DNA from: a virus
Strand: one strand, 5' to 3'
Length of the DNA stretch: 59,348 nt
Virus record (IMG/VR): IMGVR_UViG_3300028388_002907
Location: 1-59,348 of that record
The notes beneath the pieces are model-generated. The model was not told the DNA's origin. It did no database searches and saw nothing but the letters and a program-made list of their open reading frames with translations. The position numbers were made by a program, and so were the translations under genes. Shown here one piece after another: positions 1,524 through 37,744 of this stretch (position 1 is the stretch's first letter; each line of letters opens with the position of its first letter).

Positions 1524-1718
1524 TTACATATTTTTTCGTGATGTATCTGGCCAAGGGAGGAAAAAGTCGGGAGTCATTCCCCTAAACCCCTTCCCGCCGT
1601 TCAAACCACGTTTTATGTCATGTGCGACTAATTTTTGGTCGCAAAGAAACACCGTCTTTTTCGTGTCTTTCTCAATTATGCAGTACCCGCTTTTCCGCTT
1701 TCTGACAAAGTAAGTCAT
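1524..1718 (-). CDS. Small conserved-looking phage protein (64 aa), unknown function
   Basis: A basic 64-residue protein starting M-T-Y-F-V-R-K and ending S-R-K-N-M, with a beta-rich N-terminus (Y-C-I-I, K-T-V-F-L). Its ATG overlaps the stop of the gp41 C-terminal gene by 4 nt, so translation is probably coupled. I cannot assign a function from the sequence. Confidence 0.55.
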   Translation of the reverse strand: MTYFVRKRKSGYCIIEKDTKKTVFLCDQKLVAHDIKRGLNGGKGFRGMTPDFFLPWPDTSRKNM

Positions 1719-2320
1719 GTGAAATCTCCAAAATCTAGCTTGCGGTCTTCCATTTTTCTAGCAAAATCTCCCTTGTCCATTACCGAAATATCATCTTTTC
1801 GTCCACTATTCTTCTGTTTTTTCATATCTTGGGCATCAACCATCAAATCTTCTTGGGCAGAAGGTTCTGCATTAAAGACCCTCATTTTCGGCCTGTCAAT
1901 TCCCATCACAAACCGCCTGTAGTATCCAAGATCGCCCCAACGGTTTTTTAGCTGTTTGCCCATAATCTGACCCAATTCTTCCAATTCCTCACTCGAAATG
2001 AGACCGATCATGAAGTCGCAGGTCGCAGGAAGGCCGATACTGTTTTTGGTCAGAATGTCATTACAAAAGAAAAGATTGTCACCCGTAACCGATATGTCTA
2101 CAGTTTCTTTTTCGCCAACATATTCAATAGATACTATCTCGTCATTATAGTCTATCATAGAGTCTGATTTTGCTGTTTTTTCCTCCCTCTCTCTTTCTAT
2201 TTTGTATAACGTCATCGAAAGGTCTTCTAATGAAACGTCTCCGACAGACATGCCTTTCTCGATCATCATATTAGCCATTCCAACACACTTATTCAGAAGC
2301 TTTTCATTTATATCTATCAT
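1715..2320 (-). CDS. 41: Split-intein C half fused to C-terminal part of gp41 helicase
   Basis: 201 residues in three parts. Residues 1-54 are an acidic helical segment I do not recognise. Residues 55-93 are an IntC domain with D-E-I-V-S-I-E-Y, a block-F-like L-F-F-C-N-D-I-L, and the terminal T-K-N. Residues 94-201 start S-I-G-L-P-A-T and match the end of T4-family gp41 (G-Q-I-M-x-K-Q-L-K-N-R then Y-Y-R-R-F-V-x-G-I). After protein trans-splicing with the gp41 N gene, the 108-residue C-extein would restore the helicase. Ser94 is the +1 nucleophile; the penultimate residue is Lys rather than the usual His. ATG 2320 overlaps the endonuclease stop by 17 nt, with AGAAAGG just upstream. Confidence 0.9.
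   Translation of the reverse strand: MIDINEKLLNKCVGMANMMIEKGMSVGDVSLEDLSMTLYKIEREREEKTAKSDSMIDYNDEIVSIEYVGEKETVDISVTGDNLFFCNDILTKNSIGLPATCDFMIGLISSEELEELGQIMGKQLKNRWGDLGYYRRFVMGIDRPKMRVFNAEPSAQEDLMVDAQDMKKQKNSGRKDDISVMDKGDFARKMEDRKLDFGDFT
2042..2158 (-). other. Intein C-terminal fragment (IntC) of split gp41 intein
   Basis: Codons 55-93 of the gp41 C gene encode a minimal 39-residue IntC ending Asn before the +1 Ser. It resembles the IntC fragments known from split gp41 inteins of marine phage metagenomes. An internal Met at its first residue lacks a well-spaced Shine-Dalgarno: a GGGAGG lies about 23 nt away. The upstream 54-residue extension is therefore probably translated. Confidence 0.85.
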
Positions 2321-3359
2321 ACAGCCTTTCTATCCTCTGTCTTATCATTTTCTGCTGGGTTGTTAAATTATCATCCGACCAAACAACATGATATTCAAAC
2401 CCACGATTTTCAACTAATAACCTAACATCTTCGTCCCGATACTTTATATCATCATAATCCAATAATGGGTTTTTGTCAACCAAGTCTTTTCTATAATGCC
2501 AATGAGTACCATGATATTCAACAACTATTCTTAACTTTGGTATGCAAAAATCAACAAACCTTCCGATATTATCTTCTCCCGATTTTCTCACGAAAAACTC
2601 TCTAGAACCTCTGGCTCCATAATATATATCTTCTCTTTTGATCCCTAATCTTCTACAGTGTTTGTAAATCGGAGTGAAAAATCTTTTAGATTCAATAGAA
2701 ACGTATCCACCAGTCCTTTTGGTGTTATGTATTGATTTGAGGGATTTCTTAATTGCCTCGACTCTTTTATGATAAAGATAATGACCACTATCCCCATGCC
2801 TTCTTATCATAGAAGAAAGATCATTCTTACATTCTAATAGAAAAGGGGTGCGAAGCTGTTCGGATTGCTTAACATCAAATCCTTTATTTTTCCAATAATC
2901 CAAACAAAATTTAAGCTTACTTCTATGCTCTTTATATGATTCTTTACTTCTTTTTAAGACATTTTTGGTTTGTATTTCCGAAACTTTTTCGATAGCATCG
3001 GTTTCGCTATATCCACGATTAACCCAATACTCTTTGGTCCAGAGAGAAACAACATTTGGCTTTGGTCTGGATTTAAGTTTTTTTTCATATTCAAGTACCG
3101 CATTATTCCCCTTTCTAATACGAAGTTTTTCTTTCCTAGAATTTGTATCATAATACCTCAAATAATCCGCTTCTGTTTCTATGATATTACCACCATTATT
3201 TTTGTATATATCAGATAATACTTCAATGTGTCTTTGTATCTTACTATGAGAAAATTTTTTATTTTTCATAGCAATGATCTTTTCATTAAAAAATTCTTTG
3301 TTTTCTTTAGGTAACAATTTTTTAATGTTTGCGTGTTCGGTTATATGCTTCTTCTTCAT
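2304..3359 (-). CDS. Free-standing Vsr/EDxHD-like homing endonuclease inside fractured gp41
   Basis: A basic 351-residue protein. N-terminal modules contain a W-x-x-E-Y-W-x-x-R-G-Y-S repeat-like motif (about 107-120) and a looser F-C-L-D-Y-W-K-N-K-G-F copy (about 152-162), likely for DNA contact. The C-terminal third has a Vsr-like nuclease core: F-V-D-F, then V-V-E-Y-H-G-T-H-W-H (about 278-287), a conserved Arg/Leu helix, and V-V-W-S-D-D. This matches the Vsr-fold homing endonucleases found beside split inteins in marine phages. Its place between the two gp41 halves implies that it cuts intein-free gp41 alleles and drives spread of the insertion. Its ribosome site (GGAG) lies in one arm of an inverted repeat at 3366-3410. 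Confidence 0.8.
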   Translation of the reverse strand: MKKKHITEHANIKKLLPKENKEFFNEKIIAMKNKKFSHSKIQRHIEVLSDIYKNNGGNIIETEADYLRYYDTNSRKEKLRIRKGNNAVLEYEKKLKSRPKPNVVSLWTKEYWVNRGYSETDAIEKVSEIQTKNVLKRSKESYKEHRSKLKFCLDYWKNKGFDVKQSEQLRTPFLLECKNDLSSMIRRHGDSGHYLYHKRVEAIKKSLKSIHNTKRTGGYVSIESKRFFTPIYKHCRRLGIKREDIYYGARGSREFFVRKSGEDNIGRFVDFCIPKLRIVVEYHGTHWHYRKDLVDKNPLLDYDDIKYRDEDVRLLVENRGFEYHVVWSDDNLTTQQKMIRQRIERLYDRYK

Positions 3360-3365
3360 TTGATT

Positions 3366-3410
3366 AACTCCACTGTTGCTGGTATTGTTACTTAGCTTGA
3401 CGGTGGAGTT
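3366..3410 (-). promoter_or_regulatory. Inverted repeat covering the endonuclease ribosome-binding site
   Basis: Arms 3366-3375 and 3401-3410 are complementary at 9 of 10 positions, with a 25-nt loop. In the minus-strand RNA the downstream arm contains GTGGAGTT, which is the Shine-Dalgarno of the endonuclease (9 nt before its ATG). The upstream arm starts 5 nt after the stop of the gp41 N gene. The hairpin could hide the ribosome site in read-through transcripts, a strategy known for T4 homing endonuclease genes. That function is inferred. Confidence 0.5.
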
Positions 3411-3415
3411 ATATG

Positions 3416-4786
3416 CTATTTGGTACTCAAAAAATCTCCGACAGATAAACCACCTGAATTTAAGGAAATTCTCCCTCTTTGGGTAGGAAAAATATGATCC
3501 TTTGATGTGATTATACTCTTTCCAGATTTTGTGGTGATTTTAACACAGTCTTTGATCTTGGGATGATGAGTTTTTATGATAGTCTTATACCCATCATTAC
3601 TCAATATTTGATCCCCTAAAGCAAGATCACCCATTCTCTTGTGTTCGCCCGTTCTTAGAGTAACCATTTCATCAACGAATATACATTCTGCGGTATCTGT
3701 TAATTCTAGGTCTCCGGCACCGATTCCCGATCTGTTTGTCTGTGTCGCAGATACGATAGGCACATTAAACTCTACGGCAAGCCCCCTCAATTCCTCGGCA
3801 ATGGCCTTGATGTAGGTGTATGAATTGACGCCCGACATAGACTTGATCCTAGACGACACACAGATATTGATATAGTCAATGTAGATCACATCAGGCACAA
3901 AATCTTTCTTGAGTTTTAGGTCGTTAAGCAAGAACCTGAAATGATTCGCTCCTGCTGTAGTTGTGGGATATTCCTGAATGACCAGTTTTCCCTTTGACCT
4001 AGAGCGCACGCGGTTAACGCGGTTCACAAACGATTTTTTGTCTAGTGTTTTGATCTTCTGCACTTCGGTATCAAGGAAATTTGCGTCGATTCGCCTAGCA
4101 ACTTCTTCCTCGGACAATTCGAGGGTGATATAGAGGACGTTCAAGCCGTCCATCACATTACCTGCGGCGGTGCTACACATGAGCAAAGACTTGCCAACGC
4201 CTGTCCCGGCCATGATAATCGACAGGGATTTTCGCGCAAGACCACCATTTGTGATCTTGTTGATTATGTCCAGATTAGTTGGTATCCGTTCTTCGTCGCT
4301 GTTATAGTAGTCCCAGCGTGCCTCAACATCGTCAAAATAATCATGCCCGACCTTTGTATCAAACGAGACCGCAAGGGCCTCGTTTAACAGACTAGGCAAA
4401 GCCCCCTTCCCAATTTTTTTGTCTTCTCCGTCAATGACAGCAATCGACTGACGAATCGCGTTATAGAGCGCCCGGTCTTGGCAGTATTTTTCTGTTTCTG
4501 CTTTTAACCATTTGATGTTCGTGTTTGGGTCATACTCTACCCTATCCAGACATTCCATACATTCTGAAAACACTGTCTGGTCTAGGTTTTCCCTCTTTTC
4601 AACCATGATTGCCAGCACGTCCTTAGTCGGGACCGTGCTGTAATCAGACAGATGCTTTTCAAATTCTTCGAAAAGTACGCGAGAGGATTCTTCTTCAAAA
4701 TACTCTGATTTGATGAAAGGGGAAACCTCTCGCGCAAAATCTTCATTACCTATCAAACCACCAAGAATGGTTTCCTCAATCATCAT
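3416..4786 (-). CDS. 41: gp41 replicative helicase N-terminal part with split-intein N half
   Basis: 456 residues. Residues 1-367 are the DnaB-family hexameric helicase that unwinds the lagging-strand template 5'-3' in the T4 replisome. Walker A is A-G-T-G-V-G-K-S (193-200) and Walker B is V-I-Y-I-D-Y-I-N (300-307). At D-T-A-E the helicase stops and an 89-residue IntN begins at Cys368, with block-B-like S-K-D-H and an H-I-F-P-T-Q motif typical of gp41 inteins. The remaining 108 helicase residues are encoded at 1715-2041. 367 plus 108 gives 475 residues, equal to T4 gp41. The start overlaps the uvsX end by 11 nt. Confidence 0.93.
   Translation of the reverse strand: MMIEETILGGLIGNEDFAREVSPFIKSEYFEEESSRVLFEEFEKHLSDYSTVPTKDVLAIMVEKRENLDQTVFSECMECLDRVEYDPNTNIKWLKAETEKYCQDRALYNAIRQSIAVIDGEDKKIGKGALPSLLNEALAVSFDTKVGHDYFDDVEARWDYYNSDEERIPTNLDIINKITNGGLARKSLSIIMAGTGVGKSLLMCSTAAGNVMDGLNVLYITLELSEEEVARRIDANFLDTEVQKIKTLDKKSFVNRVNRVRSRSKGKLVIQEYPTTTAGANHFRFLLNDLKLKKDFVPDVIYIDYINICVSSRIKSMSGVNSYTYIKAIAEELRGLAVEFNVPIVSATQTNRSGIGAGDLELTDTAECIFVDEMVTLRTGEHKRMGDLALGDQILSNDGYKTIIKTHHPKIKDCVKITTKSGKSIITSKDHIFPTQRGRISLNSGGLSVGDFLSTK
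3419..3685 (-). other. Intein N-terminal fragment (IntN) of split gp41 intein
   Basis: Codons 368-456 of the gp41 N gene. Cys1 is encoded at 3683-3685, immediately after the E-T-A-E-like helicase motif (D-T-A-E). The block B His is in S-K-D-H and the fragment ends S-T-K before TAG. Length (89 aa) and the H-I-F-P-T-Q motif agree with the known gp41 IntN family. It should associate with the IntC at 2042-2158. Confidence 0.88.
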
Positions 4787-22911: not shown

Positions 22912-24687
22912 TTAGAGAGACTTAATGAATTGTTCAAAAAGGCGGCTTGCCTTTTCTTCCAATTCTTTCCTAGAGACTTTTGCAGTTTCCTTAATTTCTT
23001 CTTCAATCCTATCAAATTCATTTTGGACAGTCCAAGAAGATGTTGCAACGTCATATACCCATTCTACGTTTTCCATCACCCCTCTGACAAAAGCGTTAGG
23101 CGCACTCGGATCAGCAACAATGTCACCGGCTGTTGCCAGCATAAAATCTTCTTGTACCTCCATAAAGCCCTGAGAATTTTTCTTCAAGGACCCCAGACCT
23201 CTTGATGAAATTCCCAATTTCGATCCTTCGTCAATAAAATTCTTGACTATCTGTCCCATAGGCTGACTGGTCAAGATTTTTGCCTTTCCCACTACATTGT
23301 CACCATCTTCTTCCAGACTGATAAATCTGTGAGAAACCCTGTCTAAATTGATTGATGGATTACAATTACCGCTCCAAAAGCTATAACCGTTGTCCCTAGC
23401 GATAAAGGTTTGGTTTTCTACTTGAATGCAGTAAACCTTTCCCTCATAAGGCACTTTTTCAATCTTTAGAAATCTTGGGTCTAAATAAACACCTTTAGAC
23501 TGAATGACCTTTGCGAAATAAAGGGGTTTTTTATTTGCCTTTGAAATAACCCTATCAGCAAAAACGTAGTCATTTTCACAAATCTCCATAACCTTATTTG
23601 AAGCATATCCAGCTATAGAAAGAATTTGCGTGCAATCATCAATAAGTTGTTCGCTTGTTGAAAACATATCACATCTTACATATTTTTCATCAAATGTTCC
23701 TCTGCCATCTCCTAACACGAAATAGTCTAGGAAACCTTTTGCTGATTCTTTTCCGAATGAATCCATAAGGTCTCTTGGAACATATTTGTTATAGCAATTC
23801 CCTAAACCGTGTAGATATTCACCAAGCCTTCTATCATGACAACTCCACATGAGTTTTCCATTGCTTGAATACTCATGCCAATTGAATTGATTCATGTCAT
23901 TCACTAGGTCTCGTATAATATCAGCCTTGTCTCCCTCATTCTGGAAAACACTCACTTTATATTTGTTATTACAAACAGTTGTGCAACCTTCTGCTAGATA
24001 TAGTCCCATAAACTTGGAAAATGTTGCCATATCTATATCAACATCCTCCAAAAGATGTCTAGTTTTGTCTGAAACAAATTTCAGAGTATTAGAGCCTTTG
24101 ATTGTATATTTTTCTCTGGTTTCTGGCAATCCTTCATTACCTTTGGGGATATACCATTTACTGATATTGGTATCGCTAATATACTCTTTACCACTTAAAT
24201 GATCTTCTATTTGTCTAGCAGTAACAAACTTTTCTTCATTTGTTCTCTGATTTACCACCAAAAATCTGTGATCTGGTGTTACTGTGGTATCAATACCTCT
24301 GTTTTTCAGGCGTAGCATATTACCAGAGAAATCGTTCACAACATGGGTTTTGATGGTATGTATTTCTGTTCTACCATTTTTTCTGGTATAGACCTTTTCA
24401 TCACCATCAATCTCTGCAATACCTTTCCAACCGTCAGTTGTCAGGATTTCCGCTGTCTCTAAAAAGCATGGATGCCCCAATTCACCATGCGCGCGGTTTT
24501 CCTTTACGTACAGTTCGTTGTACCGCGCCATTTCTTTCATCAGAACATTTTTGGGATAGACTCTCCCATTCTTGTTCTTGATGTTGCTTTGCATGATGAT
24601 CCCTTCGATGAAATACGATTTGGAACCATCTTCATTACCTTCCTTGAGGTATGATACGTCTTCTGTCAATTCTTTGATTAGGTTCAT
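22912..24687 (-). CDS. 21: Prohead core protease gp21, interrupted by an in-frame intein
   Basis: 591 residues, of which 1-73 and 442-591 form a 223-residue T4-type prohead protease (T4 gp21 is 212 aa). It cleaves scaffold and capsid proteins after Glu during head maturation. The His motif G-E-L-G-H-P ends at residue 73. The presumed catalytic Ser lies in L-G-I-S-S-R-G-L-G-S in the C-extein (about 491-500). Residues 74-441 are a complete intein with a homing endonuclease domain. The protease is inactive until splicing joins H-P to C-N-P-S, because the His and Ser lie on opposite exteins. GGGAG precedes ATG 24687. Confidence 0.92.
   Translation of the reverse strand: MNLIKELTEDVSYLKEGNEDGSKSYFIEGIIMQSNIKNKNGRVYPKNVLMKEMARYNELYVKENRAHGELGHPCFLETAEILTTDGWKGIAEIDGDEKVYTRKNGRTEIHTIKTHVVNDFSGNMLRLKNRGIDTTVTPDHRFLVVNQRTNEEKFVTARQIEDHLSGKEYISDTNISKWYIPKGNEGLPETREKYTIKGSNTLKFVSDKTRHLLEDVDIDMATFSKFMGLYLAEGCTTVCNNKYKVSVFQNEGDKADIIRDLVNDMNQFNWHEYSSNGKLMWSCHDRRLGEYLHGLGNCYNKYVPRDLMDSFGKESAKGFLDYFVLGDGRGTFDEKYVRCDMFSTSEQLIDDCTQILSIAGYASNKVMEICENDYVFADRVISKANKKPLYFAKVIQSKGVYLDPRFLKIEKVPYEGKVYCIQVENQTFIARDNGYSFWSGNCNPSINLDRVSHRFISLEEDGDNVVGKAKILTSQPMGQIVKNFIDEGSKLGISSRGLGSLKKNSQGFMEVQEDFMLATAGDIVADPSAPNAFVRGVMENVEWVYDVATSSWTVQNEFDRIEEEIKETAKVSRKELEEKASRLFEQFIKSL
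23365..24468 (-). other. Full-length LAGLIDADG intein in gp21
   Basis: 368 codons, from Cys1 (C-F-L-E-T-A-E-I-L-T) to terminal Asn (F-W-S-G-N), with +1 Cys. Block B is T-P-D-H. Two dodecapeptide endonuclease motifs are visible: F-M-G-L-Y-L-A-E-G (about residue 227 of the precursor) and L-D-Y-F-V-L-G-D-G (about 324), each with its acidic metal ligand. Block F-like Y-C-I-Q-V-E-N-Q-T-F-I precedes the C-terminus. The penultimate residue is Gly, not His. The endonuclease is likely active for homing into intein-free gp21 genes. Confidence 0.92.
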
Positions 24688-36253: not shown

Positions 36254-37744
36254 TCAGTATTTCATGTAGATTTTGTTTCCGCTGCTGTAGTACAAACGCA
36301 GTCCGGCGTTGATACTGTTTTGCTTCTCGGTGAGTTTTTTATCAAAGCCTTCAAAAAGCTTCTCTTGCTCTGACTTTCGGAACCTCAGCCTATGATACAG
36401 CTTGTCAGATTTTTTGTCGTAGTATGAGTACCCAACAGGCGTTTCGCCCATGTACGAAAATCCTATTGATTCAAAACCCTTTCCGTTTCCATGAAAACCA
36501 TCAACATAGGTGACTATCGGTTTACTGTCAAGATGCTTCTCGATGTTTTTCATCAATTTACCTAACCCGCCCACGACACAATATCCTAGTTTTGTTGCTA
36601 TTCTGTAAACCTCGTATCCTTCGTTTCCGAATCTGGCTTTAGAAAGCAGGGCGGCCATAAACACTTCACCATCATGCTCAAGTCCGAAGCATAGCTTTGT
36701 TCCCGTATAGCCTGATATGTGGTTAGCCTCAAAAAACCCCTTCATGTCTTGGGGGTTAAGGGTGACGAATTTTGTGTTTCGGGCATAGATACGCTTGCTC
36801 TTACCCAAGACATTATTGACCATAGACTGCACAATCTCAGACTGTTCCATAATCTGTTTATCTGTGAATTGGAGAAGCTTGATGCCCCTTTCTTCGCACA
36901 TTTTCCTTTTTTCGTAGTGCCGTAAATCAACCTTTGTGTGGTTCACGCTATGCCAAAAAAGTCCGTTTACTTCGAAGCCAACCTTTTTGCTCGGGATATA
37001 CACATCAATCTCACGGGGCCGTATTTGCGTCCTGTCGTTAATGGTCATATCTTCTTCCGAGACCATATCAATCAATTTTTGGTGGGGCACCGACACCGAG
37101 AATCTCTTTAGGTCATATGACCCACTCATTTTTTTGTGTAGGTAAGATGGGGAATATCCCATATCGACGCTCAGCACGGTAATCGGAACCTCTTTCTCGA
37201 TATGAATCTTGTAGATTTCGTCAAGGTCTGGATCAGTCAAGTCCTTTTGTGAATGGTGTTCGCCAAACGCAAACTTTCTGGGATTCTCTGAATGCCATTT
37301 TCTCACGGAGTCGAGATGTTTTTTCCTGACCTCATCATTCGCCATTGGGTTATTTTCGATCATACGTTTCCTTACATTTGAATCGGGTTTCCTATCCACT
37401 TCCACAAAAAACCCCCCATACATTTCATCAAAGGTCTGTTTTCTTTTTGCTTTGGTGGCTTCATCTACACACTTTGCGTTAGAGCATGTTTTTGAGAAGT
37501 CCTTCAACGACCTATGGTATTTCAGCGGCGTACCGCAAACCGTGCATGTTGGATTGGATGTATAGCCAAGCATAATAATTTTTACCCTATCCGACAACGA
37601 TGTGTCATTGGCCAAAAATGCACTGTCTCTCAGTATTTCCTCTCTCAGTTCATCAGACGCCTTTCGTTCAAGCCAAGGACTGATCTTGTCCTTGGCATCA
37701 TTGTAGAGACCTGCCCTTGATAGTTTTTTCTTTAGTGTGTCCAT
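36254..37744 (-). CDS. Free-standing homing endonuclease-like protein between gp18 and gp19
   Basis: 496 residues. An N-terminal zinc finger has C-T-V-C-G near residues 72-76 and C-S-N-A-K-C near 91-96. A helix-turn-helix-like region (S-V-D-M-G-Y-S-P-S-Y-L) follows. A Vsr/PD-(D/E)xK-like nuclease core has R-E-I-D-V-Y-I-P and V-G-F-E-V-N-G-L-F-W-H (about 245-265), then a C-terminal domain with G-L-E-H-D-G, Y-E-V-Y-R-I-A and T-Y-V-D. This layout matches large phage homing endonucleases that sit beside structural genes and cut the same site in relatives. No Shine-Dalgarno is visible before ATG 37744, and the gp18 terminator ends only 24 nt upstream, so expression may be low. Confidence 0.72.
   Translation of the reverse strand: MDTLKKKLSRAGLYNDAKDKISPWLERKASDELREEILRDSAFLANDTSLSDRVKIIMLGYTSNPTCTVCGTPLKYHRSLKDFSKTCSNAKCVDEATKAKRKQTFDEMYGGFFVEVDRKPDSNVRKRMIENNPMANDEVRKKHLDSVRKWHSENPRKFAFGEHHSQKDLTDPDLDEIYKIHIEKEVPITVLSVDMGYSPSYLHKKMSGSYDLKRFSVSVPHQKLIDMVSEEDMTINDRTQIRPREIDVYIPSKKVGFEVNGLFWHSVNHTKVDLRHYEKRKMCEERGIKLLQFTDKQIMEQSEIVQSMVNNVLGKSKRIYARNTKFVTLNPQDMKGFFEANHISGYTGTKLCFGLEHDGEVFMAALLSKARFGNEGYEVYRIATKLGYCVVGGLGKLMKNIEKHLDSKPIVTYVDGFHGNGKGFESIGFSYMGETPVGYSYYDKKSDKLYHRLRFRKSEQEKLFEGFDKKLTEKQNSINAGLRLYYSSGNKIYMKY

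What the first reader, a model, noticed from the sequence alone, without database searches (positions are those of the whole stretch)
1715..4786. Fractured gp41 helicase: split intein plus internal Vsr-like homing endonuclease
Seen: the helicase gene stops at D-T-A-E, continues as an 89-residue IntN, and is followed by a 351-aa endonuclease gene; a third gene carries a 39-residue IntC and the last 108 helicase residues. The exteins join to 475 residues, the length of T4 gp41. Known: similar split gp41 inteins next to EDxHD/Vsr-type endonucleases were described from marine phage metagenomes. Inference: gp41 function, and so all DNA replication, depends on trans-splicing.
Basis: partly seen in the sequence, partly recalled or inferred. 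Interest (0 to 1): 0.9.

Follow-up and report, generated by a model that had tools for sequence, protein, structure and literature searches.

The report
Split-intein helicase carrying a homing endonuclease
In this T4-like phage the gene for the replication helicase is cut into two genes that must be rejoined at the protein level by a split intein; the element is a new member of a family known from other phages, and its relatives show that it still moves between phages and suggest how its DNA-cutting gene is kept silent until late infection.

Summary
Minus-strand genes 3416-4786, 2304-3359 and 1715-2320 encode gp41 N-extein (367 aa) + IntN (89 aa), a Vsr/EDxHD-type endonuclease (351 aa), and IntC (39 aa) + C-extein (108 aa). 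The exteins join without gap to 475 aa at the position of T4 gp41 E373|S374. It occurs in all 37 relatives where it can be seen, is under purifying selection (dN/dS 0.09), and is predicted as two helices.

I found 36 more IMG/VR contigs with this intein at this site (some near-identical) and one isolate, Shigella phage ESh36. ESh36 is the only carrier found among some 530 Tequatrovirus-type gp41 records. It has an exact 1,553-bp insert, no other helicase, and a cluster of flanking changes, as expected from homing.

Between IntN and the endonuclease gene lies a covarying hairpin that sequesters the endonuclease's ribosome site. In most relatives its loop holds a T4 late promoter, the I-TevI switch; the window keeps the hairpin but not the promoter. 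Trans-splicing itself is inferred, not shown. The class (fractured genes with split inteins) is known. The insertion site, IntC extension, Lys before the last Asn and hairpin make this a variant.

The parts
3686..4786 (-). N-extein: gp41 replicative helicase residues 1-367, ending ELTDTAE
   Evidence: phrog_19 E=3.5e-97; DnaB_C; T4 gp41 8dtp
3419..3685 (-). IntN, 89 aa, Cys1, block B SxxH; stop codon at 3416-3418
   Evidence: 6qaz gp41-1 intein E=1e-10; profile of three members E=3.7e-51, only copy in the record
3365..3411 (-). RNA hairpin between IntN stop and endonuclease ATG; arms 3403-3411 (UAACUCCAC) and 3365-3373 (GUGGAGUUA); the 3' arm holds the endonuclease Shine-Dalgarno GGAG
   Evidence: -16.2 kcal/mol, z=-7.1, 0/200 shuffles as good; covariation in 15 loci
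2304..3359 (-). 351-aa homing-endonuclease candidate: N-terminal helical part, two YW-x(3)-G-[YF] repeats, C-terminal Vsr/EDxHD core with E254, D270, E281, H288
   Evidence: 18-member alignment, AlphaFold2 pLDDT 78, Foldseek Vsr/I-Bth0305I, profile vs PDB
2159..2320 (-). 54-aa N-terminal extension of the C gene (helices 6-21 and 31-50), excised with the intein if splicing occurs
   Evidence: present in all 37 family members where the gene start is visible, dN/dS 0.09, pLDDT 76-91 over residues 1-50
2042..2158 (-). IntC, 39 aa, ends ILTKN; Lys in place of the usual penultimate His
   Evidence: 6qaz E=4.5e-4; TKN in all 38 members
1718..2041 (-). C-extein: gp41 residues 368-475, Ser+1; stop codon at 1715-1717
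   Evidence: T4 gp41 8dtp E=5.7e-9; phrog_19 E=4.7e-15

Best explanation
A mobile 'fractured gene' element occupies codon 368 of gp41, in the helicase motif H4 region. One operon makes the N protein (gp41N-IntN) and the C protein (helical extension-IntC-gp41C). The intein halves associate and trans-splice, giving an intact 475-aa gp41. The middle gene is a Vsr/EDxHD-type homing endonuclease that cuts the empty site in competing phages, so that the whole element is copied in with short flanking tracts. A hairpin over its ribosome site keeps it untranslated on read-through transcripts of the replication genes; in most relatives a late promoter in the hairpin loop then releases it late. The conserved C-gene extension probably helps IntC find or hold IntN. 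Shown: anatomy, family, selection, hairpin covariation, and traces of recent insertion and transfer. Inferred: splicing, cleavage, timing, and the role of the extension.
For: Gapless extein join. Both intein halves match gp41-1. The same site is occupied in 38 contigs or genomes. dN/dS is 0.08-0.10 in IntN, extension, IntC and C-extein. ESh36: complete genome with a single, split gp41; an exact 1,553-bp insert relative to ESh31 and slur07, with equal 1,428-bp joined length. Its private changes cluster within 60 bp of the junction (11/120 against 12/1308, p=5e-7), including Ser TCT to AGT at +1. No other record reaches 95% identity over 60 bp at the junction. Element synonymous divergence is far below that of the exteins in L063/L064 (0.19 vs 0.59, p=9e-19) and L071/L074 (0.12 vs 0.64, p=5e-32). 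The element is 32-36% GC, the exteins 43-45%. The endonuclease is decayed or absent in 10 of 35 readable loci. Hairpin: 91.5% of cells paired, 31 double-changed cells against 8.8 in shuffles. TATAAATA in 14 of 17 intergenic regions against 0.5 expected.
Against: No splicing, cleavage or transcript data exist. The residue before the last Asn is Lys, not His, in the whole family; whether this slows splicing is unknown. Foldseek E-values for the endonuclease are weak (0.04-0.06). The window's own hairpin loop has no TATAAATA (nearest: GCTAAGTA). The ESh36 extension has no significant pairwise similarity to the window's, and the ESh36 endonuclease starts inside IntN without this hairpin. The window record is probably a fragment (82.7 kb).
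Confidence: 0.88

Rival explanations
1. The two gp41 pieces work as a non-covalent two-subunit helicase; the intein halves only clamp them together and need not splice (as reported for the split NrdA of phage Aeh1 and the split gp43 of Aeromonas phage 25).
For: Split T4-type replication enzymes without inteins exist and are active (PMC2988022). The residue before the last Asn is Lys instead of His.
Against: Cys1, the SxxH block, Asn and Ser+1 are kept in the relatives with dN/dS near 0.08, which a mere clamp would not need. The pieces would leave 89 aa and 93 aa of foreign chain inside motif H4 of a hexameric ring.
Confidence: 0.07
2. The element is decaying: splicing persists because it is essential, but the endonuclease is no longer active or mobile in this phage.
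For: Endonuclease remnants in L052 and L067 and absence in eight contigs. The window lacks the late promoter motif present in most relatives.
Against: The window ORF is full length (351 aa) with all invariant residues E254, D270, E281, H288, and its hairpin is intact.
Confidence: 0.2
3. Assembly or annotation artefact, or a dead gene.
For: The window is a metagenomic record, and the ESh36 record is labelled UNVERIFIED.
Against: Same arrangement in 38 contigs or genomes, open frames, purifying selection, exact empty site.
Confidence: 0.01

Closest known systems
Fractured genes with split inteins (gp41-1, gp41-8, NrdJ-1, IMPDH-1 loci; Dassa et al. 2009, known from citations and memory, paper not held)
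   Same: Helicase gene split by an intein whose halves are on separate genes, with a homing-endonuclease gene between; gp41-1-like intein sequence in both halves
   Different: Site is 12 codons downstream of the gp41-1 site and also not the gp41-8-type site (both seen in relatives); 49-67-aa IntC extension; Lys before the last Asn; regulatory hairpin. Whether the 2009 paper already lists this site could not be checked.
EDxHD homing endonuclease I-Bth0305I and Vsr mismatch endonuclease
   Same: Predicted C-terminal core matches 3r3p, 1vsr and 1cw0; conserved E, D, E, H
   Different: 12-15% identity; the last Asp of the EDxHD motif is D309 in the window but another residue (often Gln) in part of the family; different N-terminal helical and repeat part
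I-TevI regulation in the T4 td intron (also I-TevII, I-TevIII, segB, mobE; PMC2988022)
   Same: Hairpin sequesters the endonuclease ribosome site, with a late promoter placed so that late transcripts lose the 5' arm
   Different: Here it sits between genes of a split-intein locus, before a Vsr-type enzyme; no operator resembling the homing site was found; the window lacks the promoter motif
Mycobacterial DnaB intein in motif H4 (M. smegmatis DnaBi2, M. tuberculosis; PMC6195587)
   Same: Interrupts the same H4/DNA-binding-loop region of a DnaB-family helicase; gp41 E|S aligns to DS in Helicobacter DnaB
   Different: Contiguous intein with its own internal endonuclease; exact register not tested here

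Membership tests
Split intein (gp41-1 related) | IntN beginning with Cys/Ser and block B; IntC ending in Asn followed by Cys/Ser/Thr; the two on different genes | tested here: met
Split intein (gp41-1 related) | Penultimate His | tested here: not met
   Lys in all 38 members; not regarded as obligatory for inteins (own knowledge)
Split intein (gp41-1 related) | Protein trans-splicing | not testable with these tools
   Needs co-expression or infected-cell proteomics
Fractured gene | Host gene halves + split intein halves + intervening endonuclease gene | tested here: met
   arrangement in 25 of 35 readable loci
EDxHD / Vsr-like homing endonuclease | Vsr-like fold with conserved E, D, H (and D) residues | tested here: met
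   E254, D270, E281, H288 invariant in 18; fold matches prob 0.97-0.99. The final Asp is variable
EDxHD / Vsr-like homing endonuclease | Site-specific cleavage of the empty allele | not testable with these tools
   Indirect: flank change cluster in ESh36
I-TevI-type regulated endonuclease | Hairpin sequestering the endonuclease ribosome site | tested here: met
   Window z=-7.1; covariation 8 of 11 pairs
I-TevI-type regulated endonuclease | Late promoter (TATAAATA) inside the hairpin | tested here: inconclusive
   14 of 17 regions in the family; absent in the window, whose late genes use NNTAAATA
I-TevI-type regulated endonuclease | Operator resembling the homing site (autorepression) | tested here: not met
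   Combined p=0.94 over 15 loci

The most novel reading that the evidence does not exclude
This is a distinct, widespread lineage of mobile split-intein elements at gp41 motif H4. It has evolved two add-ons: a dedicated helical domain on IntC that promotes pairing with IntN, and an RNA-hairpin/late-promoter timing switch that lets one operon deliver the helicase early and the endonuclease late. In some phages gp41 is even assembled from three proteins, one of which contributes only a 12-residue extein.
Probability: 0.5. Interest if true: 0.75.

Novelty: new variant of a known kind. Interest (0 to 1): 0.6.

Why it matters
Split inteins of the gp41 group are widely used in protein engineering, but as far as I know homing of a fractured gene has not been shown. 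ESh36, a Tequatrovirus with hundreds of 'empty' relatives in collections, makes this testable by a simple phage cross. The IntC extension may be a natural pairing domain of use for split-intein tools. The hairpin links split-intein mobility to the classic T4 intron-endonuclease timing switch. Three-part gp41 loci with a 12-aa middle extein would be an extreme natural case of tandem trans-splicing.

Tried and rejected
Operator hypothesis (hairpin resembling the homing site, as for I-TevI): only L045 showed it, combined p=0.94; rejected. Extension as a translated relic of the endonuclease: rejected, as it is equally present in loci without endonuclease. Extension as a phage protein known elsewhere: no significant match in 50,697 phage records nor Pfam. 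The extension of ESh36 is not alignable with the window's by BLAST, so its homology there rests on position only. Single-sequence and two-sequence scans of viral contigs were too narrow; the three-sequence IntC alignment worked. Bacterial/archaeal genome contigs: no relative of the IntC. L054/L059 were left out of the transfer argument because their N-extein stretches are not comparable. The founding paper on fractured genes is not held, so prior description of this insertion site is unresolved.

Full report
**What is there.** The window is part of an 82,743-base virus record. On the minus strand it carries a T4-type order of replication genes: DNA polymerase, UvsX, then the broken gp41. Gene N (3416-4786) is 456 aa, gene M (2304-3359) 351 aa, gene C (1715-2320) 201 aa. 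Gene N holds gp41 residues 1-367 (phrog_19, E=3.5e-97) followed by an 89-aa IntN that matches the solved gp41-1 intein. Gene C holds IntC (residues 55-93) and gp41 residues 368-475. The joined exteins are 475 aa, the length of T4 gp41 (8dtp), and align without a gap at the junction, E=2.4e-97, at T4 E373|S374. It did not mention that gene C starts 54 residues before IntC, at an ATG preceded by AAAGG.

**How widespread.** A search with three IntC-plus-extein sequences returned 44 IMG/VR loci. With the window and Shigella phage ESh36, 38 contigs or genomes carry this intein at this codon (some are near-identical). In all of them IntC ends in TKN before Ser. Of the 35 where the region between the halves is complete, 25 have an endonuclease gene, 8 have none, and 2 (L052, L067) have remnants of its C-terminal part. 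The split therefore does not depend on the endonuclease, and the endonuclease decays, as in the homing cycle of other inteins. In L045 and L054 gp41 is broken twice: a gp41-1-type intein at TRSGY (IntC of L054 nearly identical to 6qaz) and this one 12 codons later. The middle gene contributes only a 12-residue extein (SSSDPELTDTSE in L054).

**Mobility.** In L008 the N-extein is about 30% identical to the window's, but IntN is 57-59% and IntC 87% identical. In L063/L064 and L071/L074 the proportion of synonymous differences in the element is a third to a fifth of that in the flanking exteins (p=9e-19 and 5e-32); other pairs were weaker (L046/L048, p=5e-4) or not significant. In the window the element has 32-36% GC against 43-45% in the exteins. 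The best case is ESh36, an isolate from sewage (PMC9686686). Its gp41 N-extein is 95-99% identical to 465 phage records, but no other record holds its 1,553-bp insert. Joining its flanks gives exactly the 1,428-bp gene of ESh31 and slur07. Changes private to ESh36 cluster within 60 bp of the junction: 11 in 120 bp against 12 in 1,308 bp (p=5e-7). One of them turns the +1 Ser codon from TCT to AGT, as in the window; the two empty relatives differ from each other at only one position there. This is what co-conversion during homing leaves. The complete ESh36 genome has no other DnaB-type helicase, so that phage lives on the split gene. Its GenBank record is flagged UNVERIFIED.

**The endonuclease.** Eighteen relatives align over their length; E254, D270, E281 and H288 are invariant. 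AlphaFold2 gives a helical N-terminal part and a C-terminal mixed domain (mean pLDDT 78). Foldseek places Vsr (1vsr, 1cw0) and I-Bth0305I (3r3p) among the four best matches, probability 0.97-0.99 but E 0.04-0.06. The family profile finds only Vsr in the PDB, aligning D270 with Vsr's DF motif. 'Vsr/EDxHD type' is supported by several weak lines that agree; activity is not tested.

**The extension of gene C.** It is 49-67 aa in every member with a visible start. dN/dS is 0.09 over pooled pairs, equal to that of the intein halves. It is predicted as two helices with pLDDT 76-91, while IntC alone is modelled with low confidence. It is absent from the gp41-1-type and gp41-8-type genes of L054 and L082 (4 and 7 residues). 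IntN is neutral to basic and extension plus IntC are acidic throughout. I infer a role in bringing the halves together. This is the least certain part.

**The hairpin.** Between the IntN stop and the endonuclease ATG (56 nt in the window) lies a stem-loop whose 3' arm contains the Shine-Dalgarno GGAG: -16.2 kcal/mol, z=-7.1. Over 15 loci 8 of 11 pairs show compensatory changes; 91.5% of cells pair, and 31 double changes compare with 8.8 in shuffles and at most 7 when the arms are slid. In 14 of 17 loci the region contains TATAAATA, expected 0.5. This is the arrangement described for I-TevI, I-TevII, I-TevIII, segB and mobE in T4-type phages (PMC2988022): transcripts from upstream promoters hide the ribosome site, while late transcripts start inside and free it. 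The window phage uses T4-type late promoters before several capsid and tail genes (NNTAAATA), but its own hairpin has no clear one. A further parallel, an operator resembling the homing site, was tested and not found.

**Verdict.** The finding is real and correctly read. As a kind it is known (fractured genes with split inteins). The lineage at this site, with its extension, Lys before the last Asn and timing hairpin, is best called a variant; whether the founding paper already lists the site could not be checked. Trans-splicing, cleavage and timing remain inferences with direct tests available.

Noticed in passing
window 22912-24687 (-): A second, contiguous intein of about 340 aa with LAGLIDADG-like motifs interrupts gp21, the prohead protease (GHP|C ... 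GN|CNP); helicase and protease are the two genes of this record with an intein-domain match.
   Followed up: partly
L054 148-3255; L045: gp41 split into three genes by two split inteins; the middle gene carries a 12-residue extein between IntC of one and IntN of the other, with a GIY-YIG-like endonuclease gene in the first gap.
   Followed up: partly
L007 (Vibrio phage vB_VmeM-32) 529-5906: UvsX is split by an intein with a SegG-like gene between, and gp41 is split at its P-loop (GVN|C ... HN|TGKS) with a short IntN (about 27 aa), a long IntC and an endonuclease gene between; not annotated as such.
   Followed up: partly
L006 (Shigella phage ESh36) 2888-5868: Isolated Tequatrovirus with this fractured gp41, annotated only as two helicase pieces and a hypothetical protein.
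   Followed up: yes
L016 4710-7264; L051; L053: Intein halves also appear in the uvsX/RecA-like gene next to gp41 in several of these phages (L016 with an endonuclease gene between), so two neighbouring replication genes can be fractured at once.
   Followed up: no
window 36254-37744 (-): Free-standing homing endonuclease gene (phrog_3339, HNH type) next to the tail sheath gene.
   Followed up: no
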